Assembly (NCBI GenBank): GCA_023053545.1
Contig: JAKZAN010000005.1
Span: 2,604,001 to 2,668,000, forward strand
Source of the DNA: Lepidurus packardi
Taxonomy: Eukaryota > Arthropoda > Branchiopoda > Notostraca > Triopsidae
DNA length: 64,000 nt
Direction: 5' to 3'
Made by a program: the position numbers and the translations under genes. Below are positions 22,721-28,773 of the stretch, one piece after another. Below the pieces are notes generated by a model. The model saw nothing but the letters and a program-made list of their open reading frames with translations, was not told the DNA's origin and did no database searches. Positions within the stretch are counted from its first letter, which is position 1; the number at the start of each line of letters is the position of its first letter.

Positions 22721-22994
22721 CGCAAATTAACTTGTATCATGGGAAGTTAGAAAAGGAATCAGGACTAAGTTAAAGAGAGCATTGCAAGTACGTATGAAAG
22801 TACAAGTAAGCTTACGAAACATTCAAACATAAAAACTAAACTTCCATTAAATCCAATATATTTATTGTCAATACTTTCTAATACATGACCTTTAACTGTG
22901 AAAGTTGACATAATTCGGCAGCAACTAATGGTTACGTTTAGATATTGACGAAGCTGATAAAACAAATTGTTTCGCCTTCAAATCCGTGAAGAGC

Positions 22995-23900
22995 TAACGG
23001 TAAGCATTAGCTCAAGCTCGAGGAAAGGATTCCTGGTTGAATTTTCTCCATGTAAACTTCTATACGGACACTAACTGTACTTTGGCTTGAAAAAATTAAC
23101 ATTTGTTTCTACTTTTCGTTAGAGATATGAATTAAAAAATGAAACCGGCTGACACAGTGAGTTCTCTACACGCTTTGGTACTCCGAGATGTGGTACTTAT
23201 AGGCAATACATTTACCAAGTCTAAACATGGCGTGGATTGAATAACACTATGAGTTGCAAGATCATATTACATTCTCTGGTGCAATTAGCAAAATGGAACA
23301 CTAACAGTGCGCTCGATTTCGTACTGCAGTATTACCAAATCGACATCTTGGCTCTGCTGTTGCTCCAAAGAGAAGCTAAACGTTTGTTTGAATAATTTTA
23401 GCGCGCTTAAAAAGTAAAAGGAACTATTACTTTCTGGTTCAAAGACGTTGGAACGGATTTTTTTTCACATTTACAGTTCGTTTAAGCTTAGTTTAAGACA
23501 AATTGAAAAACTCGGTCTTTGGTTTGATTTCAGGGGGTCGATTGCCCTGGTAATATCAACACAGTACGCCTCATCGCAGGTACCTGGGGTTTTGCTGCCC
23601 TCATATTCTTGTACAGTATACGTAAAATTCTCAACTGGCTTCGTACGTGACTGTACCTGCTTATCAATTCCGTTGACGAACTGACCAACAGCAACCAACT
23701 GGAACTGACCAGGCAGCTTTTTTCTCTTGGAAATATTAGTTAAAGCTGCTTAATGAGTCCGCTTCCTTTCTTTCATTTCAATTTAAGCTAGTCAATACTT
23801 TCTATAGATGTACCCACCAACGTTATATTGAGTCTGAGTCAACACTGTCCGCCTTTGCCGTGCTAGGAATCTGTTTGACAGCAGCGTTGTGTCCTTTCAT
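22995..23900 (+). pseudogene. Ionotropic receptor pseudogene
   Basis: Several blocks match the intact receptor gene downstream. About 23080-23395 parallels 24945-25300 (GCTTTGGTACTCCGAGATGTGG, CGTACTGCAGTATTACCAAA). About 23532-23720 parallels the TM3 exon 26289-26515 (GTCGATTGCCCTGG, GGTACCTGGGG). About 23809-23895 parallels the final TM4 exon near 27087 (GATGTACCCACCAACGT). The exons coding for the ligand-binding S1 lobe, TM1 and pore are missing between the blocks, and stops and frameshifts interrupt the remaining frames. It is a degenerate partial copy in the same orientation. Confidence 0.8.
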
Positions 23901-24584
23901 GAAGAGCTTCTTGCAGACTTTCTTGCAGAGCTGAGGGGCGAAGCAGCGAATTGGGTATATTGTTAGTGCGCCGTAAACGATAAAGTTTGAGAACCACTGC
24001 GATACGGATTCGAAGCTTCGTAAACGACGTTTCTCCCAATCGTGTCTAAATGACAGATTTTCAATGTGAAAAATAGACAACAAAAACGCCGCTTCCAACT
24101 GCTACAATGAATTACTTACATTCTTCAGTAGTTATTTAAAGATTTATGAAGTCAAAGGTTAACGCCAACGGAACAATGCTCATAGAAAATTGAAAGGCTA
24201 TGTTCCTTTAACTTACTGACTGTGAATTTCTATTTGAAATATTTAATTCGAAGTCTACTGAAGTTACTTCAGTCTTGGTTCTACTGTACGATCTGATAAT
24301 TGGAACCTTAAAAAGCTACTAAATATCCCTTGGAATCACAAACTTGGCCAAAACGGCACAACCTTTAACCAACAGCCATTTAGAAAGCAATGTATCTCAG
24401 CAGGACTGGTGGCCAATTCATAACTGAACAAGTGAGTCCCATCCCAACTTTACACTTAAATAATAAGCACTATCAGCGCCCCGGTTACTTCATTAAAGTA
24501 TACACAACCTAAGTATTATGTCGTTGTATATAAAGGCACGCATGTTGTAGAACAGGCCCAGTAGCAAGCCATCTAACGGTCGAA

Positions 24585-27350: not shown

Positions 27351-27356
27351 AATAAA
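27351..27356 (+). terminator. Polyadenylation signal of the ionotropic receptor gene
   Basis: AATAAA lies 139 bases after the receptor stop codon, on the same strand, before the end of the inserted block at about 27452. Confidence 0.5.
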
Positions 27357-27391
27357 TGCCATCTTTTGGCAAGTTATCAAAATTGATGATT

Positions 27392-28773
27392 CTAATAGGG
27401 CGATTGCGACAAGGATTCGACTTCGATAAAGACTCGAAGCTTCGTTAACAATATAGGTAATTTAAGTACGAAATGGAAACTCCGGGTGGTCCCTACAAGC
27501 AAGGCAATAATTAAATTACGCTTACAAATATGTTCGTAGTAATACTTGCAATAAGACATGTTAAATGTCCTTCCTCCGTCTCCTTTATCCAAAGCTTCAA
27601 GCTTGTCTACATCTTCGGCTTCAAGGGTGAACGAAGTAATCTAGATAACCGAAAAAGTTACGTCAACACTATCAATATACATCCGAAACGTGCCTCGAAA
27701 TTCTCACGGAGTTTTTGTTCGCGGACACTTTTTGGCAAAATGACAATATCCAATTGTGTCAAATAGCGCAACATAATTTGCGCAGGGGTTTTCTCATACT
27801 TGTTTGCCATATCAGCAACGGTCTGGTCCTTCAGAAGGTTATGGAAGGGCCTTAAATAAAACGATTATTATTGCGTCCTAAAAATCAGAATTGTATGCAT
27901 ACATTCCAATAGATTTAAATAAACTCTCCCTTCCAGGTGAGCCCAAGGGCATGTAAGCACACATGGCTATATTCCGTTTTTTGCAAAATTCCTGCAAGGC
28001 TTTCTGCTGCAAATAAATGTGAACTTCCACTTGTAGAGCCACTGGATGATGACGCGCTACACGGATAATCCTATCAATCTGCGATTCATTAAAATTTGAC
28101 ATTCCCAACGTTTTGATTAGCCCAGAATCAACGTATCTTTCCAGAACCTATAACACACACGCTTTTGTAGTTATAAACTTTGCATGGGTTCCAAGACCAC
28201 TTTTACCTGCCATACAGAAACGATGTTTGTCGAAAAGTCCAGAGTAAGGTTATCATAAAAAGTGGTGGAATTGATAATTTCTTTGTCTGTATCCAAATAT
28301 CCACAAGGAATATGAATCAGATACAAATCAACATAATCGACCTTCAGTTTATTGAGCGACTGCGTCAGGTATTTGCCGATACTTCCTGGGCGCATTCCCA
28401 TAGGTGGCAACTATACAGAATACATGAAAGAAAAAGAAAATATGAAATTCACTTAGGGAAAGAATTCTCTTTAGACTTTTACCTTCGTCACTATGAAGAG
28501 TTCGTCTCTTTTTCCAAGCCCGGCTTGAATCCATTTCTGTATCGCATTCCCAATTGCACCTTCATTTCCATAAGCAGCAGCCGTGTCGATGTGGCGATAG
28601 CCAATCTTTAAGGCTGAAAGTACAGCTCCTTCTAGCACGTCATCATTGGCCTAGAACAAACTCATTTGTACCTAACTTAATGTATTAAAATCCGGTTTAA
28701 TTACCTGAGATGTCCCTAGTCCAATTGTTGGAATGGAATTACCGTCAACTAGCTTTAGACGCATACTTCCCAT
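27392..28773 (-). CDS. Aldo-keto reductase, tandem copy 2, with extended C-terminus
   Basis: Six exons, complement of 27392..27640, 27694..27850, 27903..28147, 28207..28410, 28483..28650 and 28705..28773, give 363 residues. The start is [20 protein letters not shown]. The tetrad Asp45, Tyr50, Lys79, His112 is kept ([24 protein letters not shown]), with Ile in place of the usual Trp after His112. Intron 5 has a GC donor (GAG|GCACGT), where copies 1 and 3 have GT. At the codon after KY, where copy 1 stops with TAA, this copy has TAC. Its frame runs on for about 48 more residues, the last 20 or so coded by the flank of the inserted receptor block. AKR enzymes tolerate C-terminal change, but loop C contributes to substrate choice. 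Whether the extension is translated or the gene is decaying is unknown; the core is intact. Confidence 0.88.

What the first reader, a model, noticed from the sequence alone, without database searches (positions are those of the whole stretch)
22925..27455. Ionotropic-receptor block inserted inside an aldo-keto reductase tandem unit
Three array units are collinear across the stretch between the FAM161-derived flank and the AKR 3' end (20043-20340, 22722-22930 plus 27452-27500, 29507-29800). Only unit 2 is interrupted, by about 4.5 kb carrying an IR gene and an IR pseudogene. The insertion must postdate the start of AKR amplification. A chemosensory receptor thus sits nested in a xenobiotic-metabolism array.
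Basis: seen in the sequence. Interest (0 to 1): 0.7.

Follow-up and report, generated by a model that had tools for sequence, protein, structure and literature searches.

The report
Receptor genes inserted into enzyme-gene array
A 4.5-kb piece of a receptor gene cluster, related to one held on another contig, was pasted just behind one copy of a tandemly repeated reductase gene; this is a clear case of an ordinary kind of gene movement, with the side effect that the reductase lost its own tail region.

Summary
Three aldo-keto reductase (AKR) units, plus an AKR-less relic, align across the site; only unit 2 is interrupted, from about 22925 to 27453. Units 0, 1 and 3 share 60-65 bp there that unit 2 lacks, so insertion in unit 2 is the derived state. 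No target-site duplication or terminal inverted repeat was found. The block is a DNA-level, intron-containing relative of an ionotropic-receptor (IR) tandem pair on contig C5 (77% over 3.1 kb). Its left edge falls inside intron 1 of the first IR copy, which is truncated and decayed. The second copy reads as an open 10-exon, 562-aa gene under constraint. The right edge lies 8 bp past the AKR2 stop codon, so AKR2 lost its native 3' flank, with the ATTAAA that AKR1 and AKR3 keep. Best reading: interchromosomal duplication of part of an IR array, possibly by error-prone break repair. IR families are known to scatter, so the case is ordinary in kind. 'Must postdate AKR amplification' is likely, not strict: divergences overlap, and unequal crossing-over between carrier and empty haplotypes could mimic it. 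'Xenobiotic' and 'chemosensory' were not tested.

The parts
18510..19352 (-). Unit 0: AKR-less relic unit; 3' flank and last AKR exon (QPEFPFRT*) joined to 5' flank, AKR body missing
   Evidence: 18510-19114 = 19756-20407 and 19128-19336 = 21744-21926, the latter to 19352; last exon read
20303..21618 (-). AKR1, 7 exons, 322 aa, open (hand-made model)
   Evidence: PF00248 182 bits (earlier model without the last exon)
20230..20294 (.). 65-bp segment just 3' of AKR1, counterpart of the segment missing from unit 2
22581..22922 (.). Left part of the 3' flank of unit 2, now separated from AKR2 by the block
   Evidence: 22581-22921 = 29365-29702, p 0.189 over 322 sites
22925..23888 (+). IR copy A: pseudogene, no exon 1, two internal deletions, 2 stops in 179 aligned codons
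   Evidence: left edge = C5:532066, inside intron 1 of the C5 relative
23932..24000 (.). Piece of a dispersed repeat in the A-B spacer, one end like a hAT element (name recalled)
   Evidence: 35 of 41 matches are this repeat; edges (7 copies aligned)
24041..24584 (+). Upstream region of IR copy B, homologous to the upstream of C5 IR2
   Evidence: 24041-24580 = C5:531293-531837, p 0.184 over 517 sites
24585..27212 (+). IR copy B: 10 exons, 9 GT-AG introns, 562 aa, open (hand-made model guided by the C5 paralogues)
   Evidence: Lig_chan 65.2 bits, Lig_chan-Glu_bd 31.3 bits; dN/dS 0.28 against C5 IR2
27213..27453 (+). 3' flank of IR copy B with AATAAA at 27351; right end of the block; no clear C5 match
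27454..27461 (-). The 8 bp of native AKR2 3' flank left between the stop codon and the block
   Evidence: 27454 = 20295; stop 27462-27464
27462..28773 (-). AKR2, 7 exons, 322 aa, open (hand-made model); GC donor at intron 5; native 3' flank displaced
29773..31121 (-). AKR3, 7 exons, 324 aa, open (hand-made model); empty-site reference
31142..32184 (.). 5' flank of AKR3, homologous to 21641-22555; right end of the array
   Evidence: p 0.268 over 787 sites

Best explanation
A segment of an IR tandem array, running from intron 1 of one IR gene through a complete second IR gene and its 3' end, was copied as DNA from an array related to the IR pair now on contig C5 and inserted on contig C4 a few bases behind the AKR2 stop codon. 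Shown: insertion in one unit only, absence of 60-65 bp of target, no TSD or terminal inverted repeat found, introns and upstream DNA in the copy, start of copy A inside intron 1, open frame of copy B. Inferred: the route, most likely break repair with copied filler and target loss (about 0.6 by itself); and direction from a C5-like array to C4, because the C4 site is the derived one. Consequence, inferred from sequence: AKR2 and IR B lie tail to tail with 249 bp between their stop codons; AKR2 lacks its native 3' flank and must end its transcript on block sequence. IR B came with its own upstream DNA and an AATAAA and needs no link to AKR regulation.
For: Unit alignment and single interrupted unit. 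Segment shared by units 0, 1, 3 and missing in unit 2 and in the block. Block 24093-27181 = C5:531338-534395 at 76.8% over 3162 columns, and 22925-23405 = C5:532066-532557. Copy A has no match to exon 1 and starts inside intron 1 of IR2. Copy B open over 10 exons with GT-AG introns; dS 0.40, dN 0.114 against C5 IR2 over 535 codons; amino-acid changes polarised by IR1 split 27 to 27 between B and IR2 (58 unresolved, 423 same); in neutral simulations at 0.08, 0.10 and 0.12 substitutions per site 0.65%, 0% and 0.05% of 2000 copies had no stop. AKR2 stop 8 bp from the junction. ATTAAA at 20194 in AKR1 and at 29676 and 29662 in AKR3; none of six hexamers in 27213-27545 in AKR2 sense; ATTAGA at the matching place of the orphaned flank. 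Insertions at breaks with deletion, filler or microhomology are described for primates (PMC2671141).
Against: 27213-27453 has no clear match at C5 (best score 50 against a shuffle maximum of 57.5), so the right donor boundary is unseen. IR A, IR B and C5 IR2 form an unresolved trio (AU p 0.25, 0.26, 0.78), so C5 IR2 may be a sister of the donor, not the donor. dS of IR B to IR2 (0.40) exceeds AKR1-AKR2 (0.29), AKR1-AKR3 (0.31) and AKR2-AKR3 (0.36), which taken alone would put the IR split first; AKR gene conversion may explain it. The loss of the 60-65 bp and of exon 1 of copy A could be one later deletion over the left junction, which would also have erased a TSD. In the primate study 17 of 29 interchromosomal insertions looked like retrotransposition and the authors did not class distant copies as repair products. 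No relative species could be searched.
Confidence: 0.8

Rival explanations
1. One IR gene was inserted and copy A arose later by tandem duplication in place; a later deletion across the left junction then removed exon 1 of A together with the 60-65 bp of AKR flank.
For: A, B and C5 IR2 are an unresolved trio; in one exon A and B are slightly closer to each other (JC 0.183) than to IR2 (0.212, 0.228); the A and B 3' flanks share a short similar stretch, score 45 against a maximum of 42 in 300 shuffles.
Against: In the other stretch compared, A is closer to IR2 (0.239) than to B (0.286); the best tree joins B with IR2, bootstrap 70; it needs two further events.
Confidence: 0.2
2. Transposon-mediated capture: the IR segment moved inside or beside a mobile element (hAT-type or Helitron-type).
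For: A hAT-like dispersed repeat piece lies between A and B; an imperfect inverted repeat lies at the left edge; an 8-base inverted match lies near both edges, 22948-22955 and 27438-27445, a length that 2% of random 40-base pairs share as a direct word.
Against: The repeat is interior; the 8-mers are 23 and 8 bases in from the edges, not terminal; the longest direct word shared by the two junctions is 5 bp, which 68% of random pairs share; 60-65 bp of target are missing.
Confidence: 0.07
3. Ancestral block: all units once held the IR block and units 0, 1 and 3 lost it.
For: None beyond possibility.
Against: Units 0, 1 and 3 share the segment that unit 2 lacks; each loss would have to restore it.
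Confidence: 0.02
4. Assembly artefact: a genuine IR locus mis-joined into the AKR array.
For: Repeat arrays are prone to mis-assembly; no reads were available.
Against: The units differ by 14-21% and the block by 23% from its nearest relative, so collapse is unlikely, and both junctions would have to be wrong; outside C4 no match to AKR1 exceeded 55% identity (28 matches).
Confidence: 0.04

Closest known systems
Dispersed copies of IR tandem arrays (Croset et al. 2010, PMC2924276; passages seen)
   Same: Tandem IR arrays with same-clade members scattered on other chromosome arms
   Different: Here the edges, the empty site and the landing place inside another gene family's array can be read; the copy keeps its introns, unlike the retroposition proposed there for fly divergent IRs
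Repair-mediated duplication (Pace et al. 2009, PMC2671141; abstract and section 7 read)
   Same: Extra chromosomal DNA at a break, with deletion or microhomology
   Different: Their closely linked events are up to 619 bp and listed deletions 1-15 nt; most of their interchromosomal cases (17 of 29) looked like retrotransposition. Here 4.5 kb relates to another contig, 60-65 bp are lost and the copy is old
Tandem AKR1-type genes
   Same: Seven-exon aldo-keto reductase copies with gene-conversion-like tracts; best PDB match 5ket, Aldo-keto reductase 1
   Different: One unit carries a foreign gene block and one relic unit has lost its AKR

Membership tests
Ionotropic receptor (IR), iGluR superfamily | Ligand-gated channel domain over the curated cut-off | tested here: met
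   PF00060 65.2 bits, cut-off 30.8
Ionotropic receptor (IR), iGluR superfamily | Ligand-binding half-domain | tested here: met
   PF10613 31.3 bits, cut-off 30
Ionotropic receptor (IR), iGluR superfamily | No amino-terminal domain (as against iGluR; recalled as typical of most IRs) | tested here: met
   Copy B is 562 aa; the matches to solved receptors listed start at residue 125 or later, and Pfam shows no further domain ahead of 155
Ionotropic receptor (IR), iGluR superfamily | Some or all glutamate-interacting residues lost (stated in PMC2924276) | tested here: inconclusive
   Read by eye in the GluD2 alignment, residue roles recalled: the arginine seems kept, the threonine region replaced
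Ionotropic receptor (IR), iGluR superfamily | Expression in sensory neurons | not testable with these tools
   no expression data
Aldo-keto reductase family 1 | Aldo_ket_red domain and complete ORF | tested here: met
   PF00248 182 bits for AKR1; AKR1-3 open over 7 exons
Aldo-keto reductase family 1 | Catalytic Asp-Tyr-Lys-His (recalled) | tested here: met
   Read by eye in the three translations; no activity tested
Transposon insertion | Target-site duplication or terminal inverted repeats | tested here: not met
   a later deletion at the left junction could have removed a TSD
Retrocopy | Intronless copy | tested here: not met
   9 introns and upstream DNA kept in copy B
Repair-mediated duplication | Deletion, filler or microhomology at the junctions | tested here: inconclusive
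   60-65 bp missing and a short TTCG-type match at the left junction read by eye; the deletion is longer than in the described cases and could be later

The most novel reading that the evidence does not exclude
The insertion rewired AKR2: with its native 3' flank gone and IR B tail to tail 249 bp away, AKR2 transcripts may end on block sequence or run antisense through the receptor gene, so that a reductase and a receptor of separate families became mutually regulated and the arrangement was kept for that reason.
Probability: 0.08. Interest if true: 0.5.

Novelty: new member of a known kind. Interest (0 to 1): 0.28.

Why it matters
It is a well-polarised case of how IR genes can spread between chromosomes with introns and 5' DNA intact, with three empty sites in the same array as internal control and a truncated sister copy that decayed while the complete one stayed constrained. 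It also shows a likely cost to the host gene: AKR2 lost its own 3' end. As a kind of event it is expected.

Tried and rejected
Read-through of AKR2 into the block: first read from a model that ended at the sixth exon; dropped when a last exon coding HPEFPFRT* was found behind one more intron in all three genes. A separate second IR exon was considered from the frames; dropped because exon 1 joins the next exon in frame in B. Element ends: looked for, not found. Dating by divergence: no order obtained. IR tree: A/B/IR2 unresolved. One search had one exon out of frame and one search replaces it; the rows for copy A held one spurious overlapping match of 28 residues, so all counts and the tree for copy A are taken from one search, which leaves that match out. 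One search's distances included intron stretches and are not used.

Organism: paired globin domains in a cluster (C3:8.69 Mb) suggest a cladoceran; this is inference. Diaphanosoma dubium (PMC9926121, abstract and passages seen) does not fit: GC 45.7% and longest scaffold 9.7 Mb, against 41.6% GC in the window and contigs of 12.5-13.5 Mb. Literature searches: Daphnia, ionotropic receptor, chemosensory, tandem; 15 of 27 papers listed; Daphnia, aldo-keto reductase, tandem; 5 of 5; break repair and filler DNA terms; 12 of 19; ionotropic receptor, nested, tandem array, interchromosomal, gene cluster; 10 of 13. None of the titles and abstract starts listed there reports an IR block in an AKR array; that is no proof of absence.

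Full report
What was checked. The window is contig C4:2604001-2668000 of an unnamed 108.6-Mb genome. Self-comparison finds three AKR bodies on the minus strand at 20295-21641, 27454-28798 and 29765-31124, and intergenic matches 21994-22255 = 28922-29184 and 22581-22918 = 29365-29698. Local alignment of the 3' flanks gives 20043-20289 = 29507-29759 (p 0.211, 228 sites), 22581-22921 = 29365-29702 (p 0.189, 322 sites) and 20033-20232 = 22714-22925 (p 0.22, 186 sites). Unit 2 resumes at 27454, the counterpart of 20295.

A fourth unit. 18510-19114 matches 19756-20407 and 19128-19336 matches 21744-21926: a relic unit that kept its 3' flank, the last AKR exon (QPEFPFRT*) and part of its 5' flank and lost the rest. 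It serves as a further empty site.

Polarity. Between the end of the left homology (about 22922) and 27454, units 0, 1 and 3 hold 60, 65 and 62 bp that align with one another (unit 1 against unit 0 score 67, against unit 3 52.5) and that are not found in the block (unit 1 segment: 30 and 28 on the two strands, shuffle maxima 40 and 39; the other two segments likewise stay below their shuffle maxima). Unit 2 is therefore the changed one: it gained about 4.53 kb and lacks 60-65 bp. The missing target could be larger by a whole number of units; the data give only the minimum. The two junctions share no direct word above 5 bp, which 68% of random 40-base pairs share; no terminal inverted repeat was seen, but an inverted 8-mer lies 23 and 8 bases in from the two edges (22948-22955, 27438-27445).

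What the block is. In the same genome the block matches C5:531338-534395 over 24093-27181 (76.8%, 3162 columns) and C5:532066-532557 over 22925-23405 (first seen). C5 holds two tandem IR genes, IR1 (about 528470-530922) and IR2 (about 531338-534395). The match covers introns and more than 500 bp upstream (24041-24580, p 0.184 over 517 sites), so the copy was made from DNA and not from mRNA. The left edge, 22925, matches C5:532066, which lies between exon 1 and the next exon of IR2 (read by eye). Copy A has no match to exon 1; it also lacks two internal stretches (23399/23411 = 25298/26167 and 23808/23806 = 26571/27080 of B), has 2 stops in 179 aligned codons, and shows 23 private amino-acid changes against 7 for B and 9 for IR2 among 174 aligned positions (75 all same, 57 other, 3 shared in pairs).

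Copy B reads open: 10 exons from 24585 to 27212, 9 introns GT-AG, 562 aa. The model is hand-made: splice sites were chosen to keep the frame and to agree by eye with the C5 paralogues. It scores 65.2 bits for Lig_chan and 31.3 for Lig_chan-Glu_bd, both over the cut-offs, and its best solved relatives are GluD2 chains (E 4.5e-24). Against IR2, dS is 0.40 and dN 0.114 over 535 codons; with IR1 as outgroup, changes fall 27 on B and 27 on IR2 (58 unresolved, 423 same). In neutral simulations the fraction of 2000 copies without a stop was 0.0065, 0 and 0.0005 at 0.08, 0.10 and 0.12 substitutions per site. B thus looks like a working gene; expression is unknown. Its upstream DNA and an AATAAA at 27351 came with it.

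Effect on AKR2. The AKR genes have seven exons in hand-made models; the last codes HPEFPFRT*. AKR2 stops at 27462-27464, so 8 bp remain between the stop and the block, and 249 bp lie between the stops of AKR2 and IR B. AKR1 has ATTAAA at 20194, AKR3 at 29676 and 29662, roughly 100 bp behind their stops; AKR2-sense sequence from 27545 to 27213 holds none of six hexamers tried, and the orphaned flank left of the block reads ATTAGA at the matching place. Hexamers are weak evidence by themselves. AKR2 is otherwise open (dN/dS 0.24 to AKR1 and 0.22 to AKR3), though intron 5 has a GC donor where AKR1 and AKR3 have GT.

Time. AKR dS values are 0.29 (1-2), 0.31 (1-3) and 0.36 (2-3). A patchwork points to gene conversion: 122, 90 and 98 sites join 1-2, 1-3 and 2-3, and AKR2 and AKR3 share a run of 109 identical bases over an intron (27788-27896 = 30105-30213). 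Noncoding distances between AKR units are JC 0.18-0.33; IR B to C5 IR2 noncoding 0.19-0.27 (its two 'distal 3utr' rows are in fact last intron and last exon and are left out). The two families duplicated in the same broad period; the order rests on topology. A carrier and an empty haplotype could also have been mixed by unequal crossing-over, so 'must postdate' is too strong.

Source. A, B and C5 IR2 form a trio whose order is not resolved (AU p 0.25, 0.26, 0.78; B with IR2 bootstrap 70), apart from IR1, IR3 and IR4 (bootstrap 100). The donor was an IR2-like array; whether it is the present C5 locus is open. 27213-27453 scores 50 against the IR1-IR2 spacer of C5 (mean of 100 shuffles 36, maximum 57.5) and lower elsewhere, so its origin is not shown. 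A score of 45 between the A and B 3' flanks slightly exceeds the best of 300 shuffles (42) and hints that both copies ended in like sequence.

Mechanism. Missing target, no TSD, a breakpoint inside intron 1 and another behind a polyadenylation signal, and interchromosomal relationship fit break repair with copied filler. Pace et al. found deletions, filler or microhomology at 51 of 68 inspected primate breakpoints, but 17 of their 29 interchromosomal cases looked like retrotransposition, and their inserts and deletions are shorter (PMC2671141, abstract and section 7), so the likeness is in kind. One later deletion over the left junction could have taken exon 1 of A and the missing flank together and erased a TSD; I hold break repair at about 0.6.

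Known context. Croset et al. report tandem IR arrays with same-clade genes scattered over other chromosome arms in flies, and 85 IRs in Daphnia pulex (PMC2924276, passages seen). In this genome 71 Lig_chan matches were found (exon by exon, iGluRs included, a lower bound), and relatives of this subfamily lie at C5:117 kb, C4:13.08 Mb and C3:7.0 Mb besides C5:530 kb. The event is thus an ordinary kind of IR dispersal whose landing place happens to be another tandem array.

Noticed in passing
18510-19352: Fourth, AKR-less relic unit: AKR body missing between the last exon and the 5' flank.
   Followed up: yes
27788-27896 and 30105-30213: AKR2 and AKR3 share 109 identical bases over an intron and its borders, a gene-conversion-like tract.
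   Followed up: partly
27692-27693: AKR2 intron 5 has a GC splice donor where AKR1 and AKR3 have GT.
   Followed up: no
23932-24000: Dispersed repeat with a hAT-like end (name recalled); 35 genome matches, a lower bound.
   Followed up: partly
22925-23041: Imperfect inverted repeat at the left edge of the block; 22986-23041 matches C5:532034-532090 in reverse.
   Followed up: partly
35394-44856: Minus-strand ORFs with ZNFX1, AAA_11, AAA_12 and RZ-type zinc-finger domains: a ZNFX1-like helicase gene beside the array.
   Followed up: no
40213-40548: Direct repeat of 124 bp, 82% alike, 212 bp apart start to start.
   Followed up: no
42786-42882 and 62174-62270; 54049-54128 and 62200-62279: Dispersed repeat copies, inverted and direct.
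   Followed up: no
   Followed up: partly
48881-52165; 60266-60808: ORFs with EGF/laminin-G and trypsin domains.
   Followed up: no
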